A DNA stretch of 64,000 bases from the NCBI RefSeq assembly GCF_007678455.1, contig NZ_VEEP01000001.1:372001-436000 (forward strand), written 5' to 3'. The translations under genes and the position numbers were made by a program. Within the stretch, counting starts at the first letter, position 1. The number at the start of each line of letters is the position of its first letter. This DNA comes from Cytobacillus oceanisediminis 2691. Its GTDB lineage: Bacteria > Bacillota > Bacilli > Bacillales > Cytobacillaceae. This document shows positions 4,481-55,843 of this stretch, in pieces. The notes under the pieces are model-generated. The model did no database searches, was not told where the DNA came from, and worked only from the letters and a program-made list of their open reading frames with translations.

Positions 4481-5671
4481 ATGAAAAAACTATCTAACCA
4501 AGAGATGAAGAAAATCGCAAAGAGTACTCTAGCTTTAGTGCTTGCTGGAACGTTCACTTTTTCTCCAATTGCAATGGCAGAAGAAAACCATTCTGAGCTT
4601 GAGACAGTAGAAATGCAAAATATCAGCCCGGAAGAAATTGAAGAAGCAAAATCTCAGGTAGAAGAATTAGAAGAAATCAATCCAACGTTGATTCCTGGGG
4701 ACTTCTTCTACTTTACCAAAATAGTCTTGGAGAAAATCAGGCTTGCTTTTACATTTGATCAGGCTGAAGAAGCAGAATTGCTCGCTACATATGCATCTGA
4801 ACGCCTAGCTGAGGCTAGTGCATTGTTCGCAGAAGGAAAAGAAGAGGAAGCGCTTAAAGTGATTGAAGCGGCAGTTCAATATATGGAAACCTCTCAGGAC
4901 ATCGTTGACGAGGAAACCTCAACAGAAGAAGAAATAGCTGCTGAAGACGGTAAGGTTTCTGAAGAAGATGGTGAAGGTACAGAAGCTGAGTCTGCAGAAG
5001 AAGAAGGGGAACCAGCTGACGATTCGGATGCTGTTGAGCAAACTGAAGAAGAGACAGACGAAGCCACTGAAGAAGAAGCGGTTGAAAATGAAGGCGAAGA
5101 AGCTGTAAGTGTAGATCCTTTTGAGGAAATCGAAGGAATGCTAAGGCAGAATATCATTGCATTAAAAGCGGCTATGGAACATGTCGGCAATGAAAATGCA
5201 AAAGCACAGCTTCAAAAGAATATTGATAAGACATACGCCAAGATGGCAAAGAAATTGGCTAAAATAGAAGAAAAGTATGGTGAGAAACCAGCAGAGGAAG
5301 AAGAAACTGCTGAACCTGTTGAATTAGAACCAGTGGTTGAGCCAGACCTCCTGCCTGCAGATGAAACACCTGAGATTGAAGATGATGCGGCAAATTCTGA
5401 AGAGACAATGCCTGTGGATGATGATTCAGTAGTCGCTGCTCCTGTAAAGGCGGAAAAAGAAAAAGCCAAGCAAGAGCGTAAAGCTGAAAAGGCTGCTGTG
5501 AAACAAGAGCGTAAAGAAGCGAAGCAGCAGGTGAAAGAAGAAAAGCGTCAGGCAAAGCAAGTTAAGAAAGAAGAAAAGCACCAGGCTAAACAAGGGAAGA
5601 AAGAAGAAAAGAAACCACAAAACAAAGCACAACACGGCAATGGCCACGGAAAAGGGAACGACAAAAATTAA
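4481..5671 (+). CDS. Secreted DUF5667 domain protein with acidic and basic low-complexity tails
   Basis: A 396-residue exported protein. Residues 1-33 form a signal peptide (basic start, hydrophobic stretch LALVLAGTFTFSPIAMA). Residues about 60-135 match DUF5667 (PGDFFYFTKIVLEKIRLAF followed by helices). A very acidic Glu-rich block and a second helical region (about 210-265) follow, then another acidic block, then a strongly basic coiled-coil tail of KEEKRQAKQ-like repeats and a His/Gly/Asn-rich end. The charge segregation suggests a wall- or surface-bound protein; function is unknown. ATG 4481 has the ribosome site GAGGTGA. A SigI-like promoter lies upstream and a terminator separates it from sigI. 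Confidence 0.85.
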   Translation: MKKLSNQEMKKIAKSTLALVLAGTFTFSPIAMAEENHSELETVEMQNISPEEIEEAKSQVEELEEINPTLIPGDFFYFTKIVLEKIRLAFTFDQAEEAELLATYASERLAEASALFAEGKEEEALKVIEAAVQYMETSQDIVDEETSTEEEIAAEDGKVSEEDGEGTEAESAEEEGEPADDSDAVEQTEEETDEATEEEAVENEGEEAVSVDPFEEIEGMLRQNIIALKAAMEHVGNENAKAQLQKNIDKTYAKMAKKLAKIEEKYGEKPAEEEETAEPVELEPVVEPDLLPADETPEIEDDAANSEETMPVDDDSVVAAPVKAEKEKAKQERKAEKAAVKQERKEAKQQVKEEKRQAKQVKKEEKHQAKQGKKEEKKPQNKAQHGNGHGKGNDKN

Positions 5672-21672: not shown

Positions 21673-21826
21673 TTCTTATCAAGAGCAGGCGGAGGGACGA
21701 GCCCGATGAAGCCCGGCAACCGATCCAGCATAATGCTGGGCACGGTGCTAATTCTTGCAGCGAAAGCTGAAAGATAAGAAGAGTTTAGTGAACGTCCTAA
21801 CCTCTTCTTTGTGAAGAGGTTTTTTT
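21673..21826 (+). promoter_or_regulatory. S-box (SAM-I) riboswitch with transcription terminator
   Basis: The aptamer runs from TTCTTATC (21673-21680) to GATAAGAA (21773-21780), which form P1. Between them are the conserved AGAGCAGGCGGAGGGA, GATGAAGCCCGGCAACC, the P3 hairpin CCAGCATAATGCTGG, GGTGCTAATTC and GCGAAAGCTGAAAGAT. The expression platform is the terminator CCTCTTC / GAAGAGG (21801-21819) with a T run to 21826. Bound SAM stabilises P1 and lets the terminator form, so mtnWXBD is expressed only when SAM is low. Unusually, 400 bp of repeat sequence lie between the terminator and mtnW. Confidence 0.97.
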
Positions 21827-38110: not shown

Positions 38111-38206
38111 TTGGTGCCCGCTTTTTATGAATCGTAAGAAATCAGTTCACCAATAGCCATTATTGGTGTCCGTTTTTTAGGAATCTGAAGAAAACAGGCC
38201 ACCAAT
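38111..38206. repeat. Short tandem repeat with 52-bp period and palindromic junction
   Basis: TTGGTG recurs at 38111 and 38163 and CACCAA at 38148 and 38200, both exactly 52 bp apart. The junction CACCAA-TAGCCATTA-TTGGTG is an inverted repeat around a 9-nt loop (8-bp arms if the TA ends are counted). The spacers (CCGCTTTTTATGAATC... and CCGTTTTTTAGGAATC...) are similar. Period and loop equal those of the large array at 54 kb, although the sequence differs. The rest of the 450-bp gap holds only the two flanking terminators. Confidence 0.7.
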
Positions 38207-38309
38207 GCCACTTCTGATGAATGATTGAGTTTAGAGGCTTCAAGGCATTGAGATAACAACTCCTTCTTATTCGGTGATTACACTTTCCCCATTGCTGATT
38301 CAATAGGAA

Positions 38310-43645: not shown

Positions 43646-43690
43646 TTAAATTCCTCCTTCAAATTTTTCCTATATTTAATCAAAAAAGTC

Positions 43691-43753
43691 TTTGACTTTG
43701 ACTATCTTTGATCAATTTAACTTTATTATACTTTGACCAACTTTGACTTTCAA
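43691..43753 (-). promoter_or_regulatory. clpE promoter with two CtsR operators
   Basis: On the minus strand TTGAAA (43753-43748) and TATAAT (43730-43725) are separated by 17 bp. A CtsR box AGTCAAA-GTT-GGTCAAA (43748-43732) fills the spacer and another, GATCAAA-GAT-AGTCAAA (43713-43697), lies just after the start region; an extra half site AGTCAAA is at 43697-43691. This fits direct CtsR repression. The remaining 300 bp up to ykvI contain only repeat-like sequence with AGGCTCTTTTCG (43887) and AGGCTGTTTTTAC (43943) and no gene. Confidence 0.92.
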
Positions 43754-47606: not shown

Positions 47607-47801
47607 ATGGACAAGGAACAAGCTGAAAGAATGCTCGAAAACTTGAAAAATAGAGAGGTTGAAGAGATTTTTGTTGCGAAGCAGGATTTTATGGTTTTCC
47701 GTGAAGTGATTGTTAAGAGAGAAGACTTTAAATATTTCAGGGGTATTGCCCAAAGAGGCGGAGATGTCATTTATCAATATATGGATGAACCAAGGAGCTA
47801 A
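47607..47801 (+). CDS. Small hypothetical protein
   Basis: A 64-residue charged protein not recognised: a helical start (DKEQAERMLENLKNREVEE) followed by a beta-like part (IFVAKQDFMVFREVIV) and KYFRGIAQRGGDVIYQY. GGGGTGTG precedes the ATG. The 250-bp AT-rich region upstream may carry its promoter, but no clear -35/-10 pair stands out. A Spo0E-like gene follows 91 bp downstream. Confidence 0.7.
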   Translation: MDKEQAERMLENLKNREVEEIFVAKQDFMVFREVIVKREDFKYFRGIAQRGGDVIYQYMDEPRS

Positions 47802-50335: not shown

Positions 50336-51591
50336 ATATTCGTGTCTTGCATGTCTTTTTTCGCTTTTATATCGAATGGACCTTTGCCAGTCTGATTTTT
50401 GTGATTATGCATTTGTTATCCTCACAGCAAATGCCATTGACTGCAATGATGGCTATAGCTGCGGCAGCCTCATTGGTTTTCGCGATCCTGTTGGAGAAAA
50501 AGCCGAATTTTGCCAAGCCAGTGTATGTACTTGTCATCCTGCCGTTGATTGTCCTGCTTGGAAATATAAGCGGACTGGATCTTTTTTATACAGGGACCAC
50601 CGCAGTAATGGTCTTTTGGAGGACCCTGAAATTTCATGAGGATTCTACAAGTCATTCGGAAAGCGTTTGGCTTGTCGTCACCTTTCTCGCAGGAGTGTTC
50701 GTTTCCCCGCTTGGGTATTTTTATGGCGGGAGCTATTTAATGCAGATCGCGATCCTTTTGATTTTTCAGTTGATGTTTATCTTATCGGGGCAATTTTTGC
50801 TAAAATGGCTGGATATTGAAACGGCTGCGAAAAATAGGTTCGCATTTACCTATTCCAGCCTGCTGGGTGGAATGCTGCTTCTGGTCGCTGCACTGACCTT
50901 CGGAAGAAATCTTTTAAAGGAATCATTCTTTTTTGTCCTGCAAGCAATTGGATGGATTCTTTCCCTGCTGCTATATCCACTTTTCTCATGGATTGCCTCT
51001 CCTGCCCTACAGGAAAGGGCAAGTAAAGTCCTCCCAAACAGAAAGCCGAATGTGGAAGATGCCCATTCTTTTGAGACGGCCAAGCTGGGTTTTGATCCGA
51101 ATTTCTGGGGACCAATCCTTTTTGTGTTTTTAGTGGTAATCGCTTTTTATTTTATTTATAAAAAAACAAGTTTGTTTAAAAAAGAACAAGGAACGAGTGA
51201 AATCCAGGCTGGGTTTGTCACAAATACTCCCTTCAATGATTCTTCACTGAATAACCTGCTTTCAAGGAAGCGGATGGCAATGCCCGCCAATCAAGTACGG
51301 AAAGAGATTTTTCAACTGGAAAAATTCGCACATAAAAGAGATCTTGGGAGACTTAATTTTGAATCAATCAATGAATGGTTTGAAAGACTCGGTATTCTAT
51401 ACGATCACAGAACCATCCGGACATATGAAAAAGTAAGATATGGTAATGATCAGGAAGAACCTGTAGAAGGCTGGTTCAAAGAGGATATCAAGGCCATCAA
51501 GAAACAACTAATTTCACTTGAAAAACATTCCAAAGAAGAAAATAAAACAGGACTGAAAGACACCTTAAGAAACATTTTAAAACGAAATTAA
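50332..51591 (+). CDS. Membrane protein of the MoxR/DUF58 operon
   Basis: A 419-residue protein with about seven hydrophobic segments in residues 1-205, a soluble linker, another helix (FWGPILFVFLVVIAFYFIY) near 260, and a charged C-terminal domain (about 320-419) rich in Glu and Lys that has the flavour of DUF4129 (FNFESINEWFERLG-like block, RTYEKVRYG). In many operons of this type the third gene is a transglutaminase-like membrane protein; the Cys-His-Asp core is not seen here, so I do not call it that. Confidence 0.75.
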   Translation: MNIRVLHVFFRFYIEWTFASLIFVIMHLLSSQQMPLTAMMAIAAAASLVFAILLEKKPNFAKPVYVLVILPLIVLLGNISGLDLFYTGTTAVMVFWRTLKFHEDSTSHSESVWLVVTFLAGVFVSPLGYFYGGSYLMQIAILLIFQLMFILSGQFLLKWLDIETAAKNRFAFTYSSLLGGMLLLVAALTFGRNLLKESFFFVLQAIGWILSLLLYPLFSWIASPALQERASKVLPNRKPNVEDAHSFETAKLGFDPNFWGPILFVFLVVIAFYFIYKKTSLFKKEQGTSEIQAGFVTNTPFNDSSLNNLLSRKRMAMPANQVRKEIFQLEKFAHKRDLGRLNFESINEWFERLGILYDHRTIRTYEKVRYGNDQEEPVEGWFKEDIKAIKKQLISLEKHSKEENKTGLKDTLRNILKRN

Positions 51592-51901: not shown

Positions 51902-52168
51902 ATGGTACAAAAACAATTCAAGGTTGTTGCTGAAACAGGAATCCATGCTCGCCCTGCTACAATGCTTGTTCAGGCTGCAAGTAAGTTCGATTCAGAAATC
52001 CACTTAGAATATAAAGAAAAAAAGGTTAACCTTAAGTCAATCATGGGTGTAATGTCATTAGGAATCGGCCAGGGTGCAGACATCGCGATCATCGCTGAAG
52101 GAAGCGACGAGCAAGATGCTCTTAATACGCTGGAAGAAACTCTTAAAAGAGAAGGCTTAGCTGAATAA
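51902..52168 (+). CDS. ptsH: Phosphocarrier protein HPr
   Basis: An 88-residue HPr. His15 ([10 protein letters not shown]) is the enzyme I phosphorylation site, and Ser46 ([11 protein letters not shown]) is the HPr kinase site that turns HPr into the CcpA co-repressor. This links to the cre sites proposed in the window. AAAGGAG lies 10 nt before the ATG. It is coupled to ptsI by TAATG. Confidence 0.98.
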
Positions 52169-53883
52169 TGGGCTTTCTCCAGGGTATTGCTGCTTCAAAT
52201 GGCATTGCCATCGCAAAAGCCTATAAGCTTGTCGAGCCGGATTTTTCTTTTGAAAAAAAATCGGTAGATGCCCCTGCTGAAGAGGTTGCACGGTTCCAGA
52301 CAGCGCTTCAGACATCAAAAGCTGAGCTTGAAAAGATCCGTGATCATGCAGGAACAGCTTTGGGTGCAGATAAAGCAGCGATTTTTGATGCACATCTTCT
52401 AGTATTAAGTGATCCAGAACTGATTTCACCCATCGAAGATAAAATCACAACTGAAAATGTCAATGCAGAACACGCATTGAAAGAAACTGCTGATATGTTC
52501 ATTGGCATGTTCGAATCTATGGACAATGAATATATGAAAGAACGTGCAGCAGATATCCGCGATGTAACAAAGCGAGTGCTTGCACATCTTTTGGGAATCC
52601 AAATTCCTAATCCAAGCATGATTGCCGAAGAAGTGGTTATTGTCGCTGAGGATTTGACTCCTTCAGATACAGCCCAGTTAAATCGCCAGTTTGTAAAAGG
52701 TTTTACAACCAATATTGGCGGCCGTACATCACATTCTGCAATCATGGCTCGTTCCATGGAAATTCCTGCGGTTGTCGGCACCAAGGCAGCTACAGAAGAA
52801 ATCAATAACGGCGATCTCGTTGTTGTGGATGGGTTGAAAGGTGAAGTTCATTTCAATCCGACTCCAGAGGTTCTTGATGCATATAAACAGATTCAGGAAG
52901 ACTTTGAGAAGCAAAAAGCAGAATGGGCAAAGCTTGTTAATGAAAAATCAGTAACAGCTGATGGCCATCATGTAGAGCTTGCCGCGAACATCGGGACACC
53001 GAAGGATTTAAAGGGTGTTGTCGAAAATGGCGGTGAGGCTGTAGGACTATACCGTACGGAATTCCTCTATATGGACAGGGACCAGCTTCCTACTGAAGAG
53101 GAACAGTTTACAGCATACAAGGCTGTTCTTGAAGGCATGGAAGGCAAGCCAGTCGTAGTCCGCACATTGGATATCGGCGGTGACAAAGAACTTCCATATC
53201 TTGACTTGCCAAAAGAAATGAATCCTTTCCTTGGTTTCAGGGCAATCCGTCTTTGCCTGGAGGAAGTAGATATTTTCCGTACACAGTTACGCGCTCTATT
53301 GCGTGCCAGCGTTCATGGCAACCTGAAGATCATGTTCCCGATGATCGCTACTCTTAATGAATTCAGGCAAGCAAAAGCGATGCTGGAAGAAGAGAAAGCT
53401 AAGCTTGTAGAGGAAGGCATCAAGGTTGCCGACCACATCGAACTTGGAATCATGGTCGAAATCCCTTCAACTGCGGTCCTTGCAGACCAGTTCGCAAAGG
53501 AAGTTGACTTCTTCAGTATCGGAACAAATGACCTTATTCAATATACGATGGCTGCAGACAGGATGAACCAGCAGGTATCCTACTTGTACCAGCCGTATAA
53601 TCCGTCCATCCTTCGTCTTGTGAAAATGGTTATTGATGCAGCGCATAAAGAAGGCAAATGGGCTGGCATGTGCGGGGAAATGGCCGGTGACGAAACTGCT
53701 ATTCCGATTTTGCTTGGTTTAGGTCTTGATGAGTTCTCAATGAGTGCTTCTTCAATCCTGAAAGCACGCTCTTTGATCAGAAACCTGAACAAAGCCGATA
53801 TGGAAAAGCTGGCTTCTGACGTCTTAAACATGAGCACCACAGAAGAAGTAGTCGAAGCAGTAAACAAAGCAGTCGCTTTGTAA
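52168..53883 (+). CDS. ptsI: PTS enzyme I (phosphoenolpyruvate-protein phosphotransferase)
   Basis: A 571-residue enzyme that transfers phosphate from PEP to HPr. The active His189 is in [13 protein letters not shown]; the PEP-binding domain shows [41 protein letters not shown] and the catalytic Cys in [11 protein letters not shown]. Length and order are standard for Bacillaceae. A terminator lies 110 bp downstream. Confidence 0.98.
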
Positions 53884-53993: not shown

Positions 53994-54022
53994 GCCGGCT
54001 GTTAAACAGCCGGCATTTTTTT
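53994..54022 (+). terminator. Terminator of ptsHI
   Basis: Stem GCCGGCTGTT / AACAGCCGGC followed by seven T. It separates ptsHI from the tandem array. Confidence 0.88.
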
Positions 54023-54075: not shown

Positions 54076-54870
54076 AACTTCGGACATGTTTGAAGAAAAA
54101 TGGAGAGAAGTTGTCCGAAGCAGGATCGGCTTTGGACAGGTTTGAAGGAAAATGGAGAAAAGCTGTCCGAAGCAGGAGCAACTTCGGACAGGTTTGAAGG
54201 AAAATGCCAAAATGTTGTCCGAAGCAGGATTGACTTCGGACAGGTTTAAAGAAAAATGCAGAAAAGCTGTCCAAAGCTGGGGCGATTTCGGACAGGTTTG
54301 AAGTGAAAAGCAGAAAAGCTGTCCGAAGCAGGATCGACTTCGGACAGGTTTGACGGAAAAAGCAGAAAAGCTGTCCGAAGCAGGGGCGACTTCGGACAGG
54401 TTTGCAGGAAAAAGCAAAAAAGCTGTCCGAAGCAGGGGCAAGTTCGGACAGGTTTGCAGGAAAAAGTAGAAAAGCTGTCCGAAGCAGGGGCGACTTCGGA
54501 CAGGTTTGACGGAAAAAGCAGAAAAGCTGTCCGAAGCAGAGGTGACTTCGGACAGGTTTGTCGGAAAAAGCTGAAAAGCTGTCCGAAGCAGTGGCGACTT
54601 CGGACAGGTTTGAAGGGAAAAGCAGAAAAGCTGTCCGAAGCAAGAGCACCTTCAGACAGGTTTGCAGGAAAAAGCAAAAAAGCTGTCCGAAGCAGTGGCA
54701 AGTTCGGACAGGTATGACGGAAAAAGCAGAAAAGCTGTCTGAAGCAAGATCAACTTCGGACAGCTCTAGAGAATATAGCAGGAAACCTGTCAAAAGTCAG
54801 TCCAACTTCCAGACAAGTTCATAAGGAAGAGCATCAAAGCTATCTAAAACAGTACTTATCTGACAGGTGA
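54076..54870. repeat. Tandem hairpin array, 16 units with an exact 52-bp period
   Basis: The GGACAG element occurs at 54082, 54134, 54186 and so on every 52 bp to 54862 with no insertion or deletion, degenerating at both ends. Each of 15 junctions is an inverted repeat, typically CTGTCCGAAG - 9 nt - CTTCGGACAG, and the junctions centred in units 6, 7, 9, 10 and 11 are perfect. Loops are variable purine-rich 9-mers (CAGGGGCGA, CAGTGGCGA, CAGAGGTGA, CAGGATCGA). The 23-bp spacer reads about GTTTGACGGAAAAAGCAGAAAAG. Long frames through it on either strand (up to 263 codons) follow from lack of stops in the unit and are not genes. There is no gene between 53884 and 54948. Confidence 0.95.
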
Positions 54871-54948: not shown

Positions 54949-55614
54949 TTAAACTTTAAATGGGTTTTTCCACTCCATCAGCATTCCATAATTCAGTGAT
55001 TCTTCATCTTCCAGATAATTGGCTACCGGTTTTACCGGAGTACGGCCGCAGCGGAGCAAAAAGGAAACGACCGGATCCCTCAATTCACCACCCAGAACTT
55101 TTTCTACATACTGGTCAATCGACAGTTGTGCAGAGAATGCGTGATAACCTGGCATCCTGCCGCCTCCCAAAAGTCTATCCAATCCTAAATGAACAACTGT
55201 CTCATACATGCATTGCATCATCCATTTTCCAAGTCCTAATTTACGATAGGCAGGGCTGATGCAAATATCTACAATATAAAGGGTGTTGCCGTCCGGATCA
55301 TGGTTCCGGATATAGCCATTATCGGTAATATCAGCCCAGGAATGTTCTTCATCACCTTTTTTCATTTCAACGATCAGGCCGGTGATCGACCCTGCAATGC
55401 GGCCGCCAACTTCGACACATATAGCACCTTCGGTGAACAAGCTAATATGATTTGTCAGCTGCTCTTCATTCCACCAGAGTTCTTCCGGAAATGGCGGGGG
55501 AAAGGCTTCCTGCTGGACACGGATTAACTGCTCAAAATCGTCTCTCGTATAATTTCTAAACGTTGCCTTGACAGGTTTATTATTTTCGTAAACATAAATC
55601 TCTTTATAAAACAT
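54949..55614 (-). CDS. GNAT-family N-acetyltransferase
   Basis: A 221-residue acetyltransferase. The acetyl-CoA loop is SPAYRKLGLGKWMMQ (R/QxxGxG/A), preceded by LYIVDICI and GRIAGSITGLIVE. The N-terminal 30 residues and a C-terminal extension with GGGRMPGYH are extra to the fold. Start 55614 has CGAGGTGCGAAC upstream; the 318-codon frame is an over-extension. It sits where ykwB, also a GNAT gene, is in B. subtilis, near ykwC. Substrate unknown. Confidence 0.85.
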   Translation of the reverse strand: MFYKEIYVYENNKPVKATFRNYTRDDFEQLIRVQQEAFPPPFPEELWWNEEQLTNHISLFTEGAICVEVGGRIAGSITGLIVEMKKGDEEHSWADITDNGYIRNHDPDGNTLYIVDICISPAYRKLGLGKWMMQCMYETVVHLGLDRLLGGGRMPGYHAFSAQLSIDQYVEKVLGGELRDPVVSFLLRCGRTPVKPVANYLEDEESLNYGMLMEWKNPFKV

Positions 55615-55843
55615 GTTCGCACCTCGAAAAGTCGTCATAACCACAGTATAAAAAGTTCGGGCACACAAGGTCAACTTGTGATCCATTAAATAAAGTCGAT
55701 TGTTTAAAAAGACCAAAGAAAGGGTAACATAATGATGCGCATAAAAATGGTAGATCGCTCTGGAGGCCGGGATTAATTTCTCGGCCTTTTTTGATTCTAA
55801 TGTTAGAATATATTTAAAATTAAAGAGGGAAGAAGGAGTACAT

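What the first reader, a model, noticed from the sequence alone, without database searches (positions are those of the whole stretch)
54076..54870. Hairpin array with an exact 52-bp period and no indels
Seen: 16 register-perfect units, 15 junctions each forming a roughly 10-bp stem (CTGTCCGAAG / CTTCGGACAG) around a variable 9-nt loop, with 23-bp conserved purine-rich spacers. Substitutions occur but no indel, so length and phase seem selected. 52 bp is close to five helical turns, which would put all palindromes on one DNA face. It lies downstream of the ptsHI terminator and in no gene. It does not look like CRISPR: spacers are conserved, loops only slightly variable, and no cas gene is near. 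Possible roles (inference): an array of protein-binding palindromes for nucleoid structure, a target or reservoir of a mobile palindrome, or an RNA with serial hairpins.
Basis: partly seen in the sequence, partly recalled or inferred. Interest (0 to 1): 0.75.

Follow-up and report, generated by a model that had tools for sequence, protein, structure and literature searches.

The report
Replication-oriented 52-bp satellite array behind ptsI
This is one of many intergenic repeat arrays in a Bacillus-like bacterium, repeating every 52 base pairs although their sequences differ; the repeat class has been published, its purpose is unknown, and the window's type of array points along the direction of DNA replication.

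Summary
The array is real: 14 contiguous 52-bp units (54077-54804) without an indel, then a decayed, shifted tail, behind the ptsHI terminator. It is not unique: 736 kb of the same contig hold 22 intergenic array loci of 51-53 bp with several unrelated sequences. This is the "52 nt tandem repeat" class of Bacillus published by Subirana and Messeguer (PMC8161180): constant length, variable sequence, function unknown. The genus is very probably Mesobacillus (inference).

I did not find these points in the text I read. (1) In the GACAG/CTGTC family both intervals are fixed (23 bp in 536 of 556 units, 19 bp in 544 of 556). (2) Per substitution, indels are about 6 times rarer than in ordinary intergenic DNA, about 15 times if one ill-fitted array is dropped. 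(3) Orthologous intergenic sites can carry different unit sequences at the same step. (4) Orientation follows replication in 52 of 53 arrays counted in four complete genomes; composition alone predicts 74%.

Best mechanism (inferred): helically phased, replication-polarised DNA sites for an unidentified protein.

The parts
54077..54804 (+). Array of 14 contiguous 52-bp units, consensus ACTTCGGACAGGTTTGAAGGAAAAAGCAGAAAAGCTGTCCGAAGCAGGGGCG; orientation called + because GACAGG...GCTGTC reads on the + strand
54805..54870 (+). Decayed tail: one-base shift, recognisable GACA/CTATC remnants, out of register
54163..54191 (.). Example of a junction palindrome (10 of 10 pairs, 9-nt loop); the same element recurs at 52-bp steps through the array, with 8-10 pairs in 13 junctions
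53994..54014 (+). Intrinsic-terminator-like hairpin of ptsHI; the array starts 62 bp further on
52168..53883 (+). ptsI (PEP-utilising enzyme domains), upstream neighbour
51902..52168 (+). ptsH (HPr)
54949..55662 (-). GNAT-family acetyltransferase gene, convergent neighbour (stop at 54949; start not determined)

Best explanation
Identity (shown): one locus of the published class of 52-nt intergenic tandem repeats of Bacillaceae, a polymorphic minisatellite whose copy number changes mostly by about whole units. Mechanism (inferred): the functional unit is double-stranded DNA. Two inverted, slightly unequal half-sites (core TYnnGACAGSTTT) sit at fixed spacing in each unit, and units repeat at about five helical turns, so equivalent sites lie on one face of the helix and can be bound cooperatively by a protein not yet identified. 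The array has polarity: the purine-rich GACAGG...GCTGTC strand is the leading-strand sequence. The role would be in chromosome organisation or fork-coupled processes rather than in the neighbouring genes. Copy number and much of the sequence may drift; step and polarity may not.
For: Both intervals fixed: 23 bp in 536 of 556 and 19 bp in 544 of 556 units from 117 arrays (same-species copies in G041 counted too); unit exactly 52 in 526 of 556. Indel/substitution ratio in arrays 39/1315 over all 22 (14/1192 without one badly fitted array) against 65/370 in intergenic non-array DNA and 16/1855 in coding DNA between strains. TRF reports 0% indels for 12 of the 22 real array loci but for 1 of 85 simulated arrays with the intergenic indel ratio. 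Non-coding repeats of period 19 or more in the 736 kb: 31 of 33 fall at 20-21, 41-42 or 51-53 bp. T at position -4 of both half-sites is the majority base in 94 of 94 oriented arrays although the search did not ask for it, which suggests sequence recognition; G.T against A.C mismatches show no consistent strand preference. Orientation agrees with replichore in 52 of 53 arrays counted in four complete genomes and with array-masked GC skew in 79 of 87. Convergent sites agree 16 of 16 and divergent 13 of 16, where gene direction gives no cue (skew not masked).
Against: No binding protein is known or was found. Strand composition alone would orient about 74% of such units, and the arrays counted for polarity are partly orthologous between the four genomes. 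Three tandem arrays (one in C111, two in L217) follow neither genes nor skew, and two (L205, L206) follow their genes against a weak skew. Some arrays do have indels (TRF 3-6% at 47639, 203359, 271981). The half-site register of the other superfamilies is not significantly the same. The C family has a different layout and three E arrays have 53 bp. Intrinsic curvature is not generally raised (4 of 29 consensuses above z 2; model parameters recalled). RNA-seq reads match this class in B. coagulans (PMC8625621).
Confidence: 0.42

Rival explanations
1. Selfish or neutral minisatellites. Replication slippage or unequal exchange at hairpin-prone DNA makes and deletes whole units, the length being set by the duplication machinery; orientation bias reflects orientation-dependent stability during lagging-strand synthesis plus strand composition.
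For: Flank-to-flank length differs by 51-606 bp at 8 of 12 arrays between two strains of mostly about 99% identity, mostly close to whole units. At the ptsI site arrays shrink to about one unit (G017, G003) or half a unit (G007) or are absent (G001, G015, G011, G002, G008). Some arrays show 156-bp and 104-bp higher-order units. Composition alone predicts 74% polarity.
Against: Does not explain why point indels inside units are rare while substitutions are common, nor why both intervals are fixed separately.
Confidence: 0.3
2. RNA-level element: arrays are transcribed into chains of hairpins acting as small RNAs, sponges or weak bidirectional terminators behind operons.
For: Four units (54181-54388) fold better than shuffles on both strands (z -5.33 and -7.24). 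On the minus strand hairpins are followed by CTTTTC and pass a loose terminator scan at 5 places. Arrays in tandem gene pairs lie nearer the upstream stop in 40 of 55. In tandem pairs the array has the direction of the genes in 34 of 40, though replication explains this too. RNA-seq matches in B. coagulans. The first two pairs beyond CTGTC pair more often than shuffles.
Against: Fixed loop lengths are not expected for RNA hairpins. Significant inverted repeat in 16 of 28 consensuses only. Three tandem loci with a clear contrary skew (L015, L259, L264) follow skew, not genes. No Rfam match at the array.
Confidence: 0.2
3. REP/BIME-like palindromes spread by a RAYT (Y1) transposase.
For: Palindromic, intergenic, dispersed, and present as a remnant of one hairpin in G007. 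Y1_Tnp matches exist in 18 of 21 genomes of the genus.
Against: No Y1_Tnp match in array-rich G006 and G015; matches in array-poor G008 and G011, some of them broken. Tandem with exact period rather than dispersed singles or doublets.
Confidence: 0.03

Closest known systems
52-nt tandem repeats of Bacillus/Firmicutes (Subirana and Messeguer 2021, PMC8161180; parts 1-4 of 5 read)
   Same: 51-53 nt period, non-coding, many sequence families per genome, unstable length between strains, short motifs together with their reverse in one unit, function unknown; protein polymer on DNA or small RNA suggested by the authors
   Different: Not a different thing. A word search of the main text found 0 of 'leading', 'orientation' and 'palindrom'; the one 'replication' and the helix-turn remark concern the 20-21 nt class. 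Polarity, fixed two-interval geometry and the indel comparison are added here.
Transcribed satellites of B. coagulans (PMC8625621; parts 1-2 of 3 read)
   Same: 52-nt repeats; RNA-seq reads match them
   Different: Strand, ends and function of the transcripts are not shown in the parts I read; not testable here for Mesobacillus
BIME/REP elements of enterobacteria (recalled)
   Same: Intergenic palindrome arrays, often at 3' ends
   Different: No exact helical period (recalled); linked to RAYT transposases, whose family does not track the arrays here
Replication-polar motifs such as KOPS/SRS or Chi (recalled)
   Same: Leading-strand orientation over whole replichores
   Different: Those are short dispersed oligomers; these are phased tandem arrays with inverted half-sites

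Membership tests
52-nt tandem repeats (Subirana and Messeguer) | Repeat of 51-53 nt, at least four repeats | tested here: met
52-nt tandem repeats (Subirana and Messeguer) | Several families of the same length but different sequence in one genome | tested here: met
52-nt tandem repeats (Subirana and Messeguer) | Outside protein-coding genes | tested here: met
   22 of 22 array loci lie between genes by own ORF caller; one weak call (score 9) overlaps the window array; no Pfam match for the 263-aa ORF
52-nt tandem repeats (Subirana and Messeguer) | Length only partly conserved between strains | tested here: met
   8 of 12 arrays differ by 51-606 bp between G000 and G041
52-nt tandem repeats (Subirana and Messeguer) | Transcribed | not testable with these tools
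   reported for B. coagulans
CRISPR array | Unique spacers between repeats | tested here: not met
   14 units, intervals included, match one consensus at 35-51 of 52
CRISPR array | cas genes | not tested
   no cas search was run
REP/BIME with RAYT | Y1 transposase in genomes that carry the element | tested here: not met
   no match in array-rich G006 and G015, matches in array-poor G008 and G011; present in 18 of 21 genomes over all
Replication-polar motif (KOPS/SRS-like) | Orientation biased with replication direction | tested here: met
   52 of 53 arrays counted, against 74% expected from composition
Replication-polar motif (KOPS/SRS-like) | Read by a translocase or helicase | not testable with these tools
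   needs experiment
Intrinsic terminator | Stem followed by a U run | tested here: inconclusive
   5 minus-strand sites pass a loose scan with short T runs; other families not scanned

The most novel reading that the evidence does not exclude
The arrays form a genome-wide, replication-polarised, helically phased DNA system in which step and direction, not sequence, are the signal: different unit sequences occupy the same intergenic sites in different species while the period persists, and a dedicated protein reads fork direction or organises each replichore.
Probability: 0.22. Interest if true: 0.88.

Novelty: new member of a known kind. Interest (0 to 1): 0.6.

Why it matters
Why some Firmicutes keep dozens of arrays with one length and no common sequence was left open in 2021 (PMC8161180), and my searches found no later answer. 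Four constraints seen here narrow it: fixed spacing of two inverted half-sites, few indels, arrays of different sequence at the same intergenic sites, and near-complete alignment of the window family with replication direction. These turn the question into direct tests (pull-down with 52- versus 47/57-bp arrays; flipping an array). If the polarity is functional rather than compositional, a chromosome-organising signal of a new layout would be involved.

Tried and rejected
Coding repeat: 52 is not a multiple of three; the open minus-strand ORF reads all three frames of the unit and has no Pfam match. Rfam: nothing at the array. CRISPR: units, intervals included, are alike. RAYT/REP. Intrinsic curvature: no general excess (wedge parameters recalled, not from a call). 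RNA covariation: over 84 distinct array consensuses the first two pairs beyond CTGTC pair more often than shuffles (64 of 84 against 43 expected; 34 of 84 against 22), the third does not, and slid pairs also share information, so subfamily structure cannot be excluded. One common superfamily for all arrays: the GCCCG...CGGT arrays take the same best register as the window family in four of seven, without significance. Universal hairpin: 16 of 28 only. The distance profile does not define one arm distance and was not used. The control is useless because the pattern is nearly its own mirror; one search has a valid one. Enrichment at convergent sites: 22 array loci split 16 tandem, 4 convergent, 2 divergent against 477, 89 and 90 of all gene gaps, so none seen. 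Paper searches with terms on tandem repeats, 52 bp, replication direction or leading strand gave no further paper on the subject; of the four papers listed two were already known and two were not opened, nor were the other papers listed apart from the three named here. The 2020 J. Bacteriol. paper of the same authors is not held, so 'not in print' rests only on what I read and searched.

Full report
What is there. The window lies in contig C111 of an unnamed draft genome of 4.9 Mb in 477 contigs. Between ptsI and a convergent GNAT gene lies a run of 14 contiguous 52-bp units, 54077-54804, each matching the consensus at 35-51 of 52 positions, no indel; the next two blocks fall to 17 and 12 of 52 after a one-base shift. 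TRF reports 13.2 copies, 0% indels. The start is 62 bp behind a terminator-like hairpin at 53994-54014. Because GACAG can pair with CTGTC on either side, each unit also has an inner inverted repeat with a 23-bp interval.

It is one of many. The own genome holds 281 forward and 265 reverse matches of GACAG-N20-26-CTGTC-N16-22-GACAG against 0 and 0 in the mirrored control; the two strands interleave, so these are about 280 units. In the genus 17 of 20 genomes have at least 13 forward matches and three have at most one (G008, G011, G014); of 21 genomes outside it, one (G032) has 28 and the rest at most 4 on a strand. More strikingly, 736 kb of contig C111 hold 22 array loci of period 51-53 with several unrelated sequences. 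G014, without any match to the GACAG pattern, has six arrays of period 52 in 400 kb with other sequences; G021 has two short ones in 200 kb; samples of G023, G022, G030 and G033 (200, 140, 140 and 120 kb) show none of that period.

Prior art. This is the class described by Subirana and Messeguer for 176 Bacillus genomes: repeats of 20-21 or 52 nt with constant length and variable sequence, several families per species, unstable between strains, with short motifs and their reverse in one unit; they propose a DNA-binding protein polymer or small RNAs (PMC8161180, parts 1-4 of 5 read; word search). The same authors find RNA-seq reads matching 52-nt satellites in B. coagulans (PMC8625621, parts 1-2 of 3 read). 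Of PMC6749651 four passages were seen. So the finding is a new member of a known kind, whose function is open.

Length is held, sequence is not. From 117 arrays of the window family (C111, own-genome regions, G041 and 80 titled loci) I collected 556 units: 526 are exactly 52 bp, the first interval is 23 in 536, the second 19 in 544. The GACAG and CTGTC cores were required by the search and the intervals were free within 20-26 and 16-22; the titled loci had been fetched with a similar pattern. Between G000 and same-species G041 the ratio of indels to substitutions is 65/370 in intergenic non-array DNA and 16/1855 in coding DNA; between units and consensus in the 22 array loci it is 39/1315, or 14/1192 without one locus where two sub-arrays were fitted together. 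Of 85 simulated arrays (17 of the array types, five times each) with the intergenic ratio all are detected and one shows 0% indels, against 12 of 22 real loci with 0%, so the lack of indels is not caused by the detection; a few real arrays do have 3-6% (47639, 203359, 271981). The comparison sets within-array divergence against between-strain divergence, which is a limitation. Non-coding repeats of period 19 or more in the contig stand at 20-21 (6), 41-42 (3), 51-53 (22), 122 and 178, that is, at about two, four and five helical turns apart from the last two; the window array itself fell in that call's coding list because of a spurious ORF call (my reading).

Positions are reused. At the ptsI site, arrays of two or more units follow the conserved terminator region in G000, G041, G013, G016, G009, G012, G006, G005, G019 and G018; G017 and G003 have about one to one and a half units, G007 half a unit (my reading of the sequences); G014 has a 52-bp array of another sequence; G001, G015, G011, G002 and G008 show none; G004 ends too early and G010 has no intact ptsI. 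That is 14 of 19 assessable. Elsewhere three of five mappable G014 arrays (of six) lie in the intergenic region that carries an array in G000, with different units; seen from the other side, 3 of 10 mapped G000 arrays have one in G014. In at least one pair the units may be diverged homologues (by eye), so replacement and divergence are not separated. Between G000 and G041, 8 of 12 arrays differ by 51-606 bp, mostly close to whole units.

The palindrome is common but not general. An inverted repeat beyond dinucleotide shuffles is present in 16 of 28 array consensuses. Against a profile of the window family built without C111 and G041 arrays, its seven C111 members, three of four D arrays, G, L019 and three G014 arrays are significant at p 0.05 or better; one D array, F, the seven GCCCG...CGGT arrays, E (53 bp) and C are not. 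Hence period, rather than one palindrome, is the constant.

Polarity. The unit is almost self-complementary, but GACAGG...GCTGTC differs from its complement. An oriented exact pattern in four complete genomes, with oriC placed by dnaA and the terminus taken as half way round, gives 29 arrays on the right replichore, all +, and on the left replichore 23 - and 1 + (exception: G041 at 3.319 Mb): 52 of 53. For G009 all 57 forward but only 43 of 51 reverse hits were listed; G019 and G015 were searched but none of their places was listed, so they are not in the count; the looser search gave a partial list and is not counted either. Composition of leading-strand intergenic DNA alone predicts 74%; with the 53 arrays taken as independent P is 2e-6, for 29 of 30 it would be 1e-3; orthology between genomes makes the number of independent arrays smaller than 53. 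In single loci orientation agrees with the GC skew, array masked, in 79 of 87. In convergent sites it agrees 16 of 16 and in divergent 13 of 16 (skew not masked). In tandem sites orientation equals gene direction in 34 of 40; of the six that do not, three (L015, L259, L264) follow the skew instead and three (one in C111, two in L217) follow neither; two (L205, L206) follow their genes against a weak skew. Replication is thus the better predictor, on few discordant cases. Over families, 19 of 21 array loci of the contig are purine-rich on the leading strand (mean 0.576 against 0.523 for intergenic DNA; a repeated unit varies more than ordinary DNA; the two-copy array at 410111 was not in that list), and 5 of 6 in G014.

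Context. All 22 array loci lie between genes by my own ORF caller: 16 tandem, 4 convergent, 2 divergent, about as expected from the frequency of such gaps. Of 111 window-family arrays considered in loci (G041 left out), 87 could be classified: 55 tandem, 16 convergent, 16 divergent; tandem ones lie nearer the upstream stop in 40 of 55.

Mechanism. Shown: fixed geometry, few indels, polarity, instability of copy number. Inferred: a protein binding phased double-stranded sites with polarity, acting on chromosome organisation. Rivals are neutral satellites with length set by the duplication machinery and orientation-dependent stability, and an RNA role. I put 0.42, 0.30 and 0.20 on these.

Noticed in passing
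window 38111-38210: A second, two-copy 52-bp repeat (TTGGTGCCCG...CACCAAT type) in a convergent intergenic gap of the same window.
   Followed up: partly
window 43690-43750, 5532-5611 and 51151-51190: Short tandem repeats of 25, 33 and 20 bp reported by TRF, not examined.
   Followed up: no
window 21673-21780: SAM riboswitch (RF00162) on the + strand.
   Followed up: no
L194, L216, L227 and ten other loci titled Chryseobacterium sp. ISL-80: Records named Chryseobacterium carry these Bacillaceae arrays; the organism label is probably wrong.
   Followed up: no
G009 and G016: No unit of the exact oriented pattern between about 1.9 and 3.4 Mb, around the presumed terminus, in these two genomes, while G041 and G018 have some near theirs.
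   Followed up: no
C111:144640, 448410, 707550: A family with CATAAGGG...CCCTTATG arms has 53 bp, not 52, in all three arrays.
   Followed up: partly
L025:1144-1433: An array of 56-bp period beside a 52-bp array.
   Followed up: no
G032: A genome of another family of the order has 28 forward matches to the two-interval pattern; transfer or convergence not examined.
   Followed up: no
C111:249503-249902, 564427-564665 and L073: Repeats of 122-178 bp (TCGGTCCGCCCAATGAAGTCAAAGA...) in intergenic DNA of the genus, a different repeat family.
   Followed up: no
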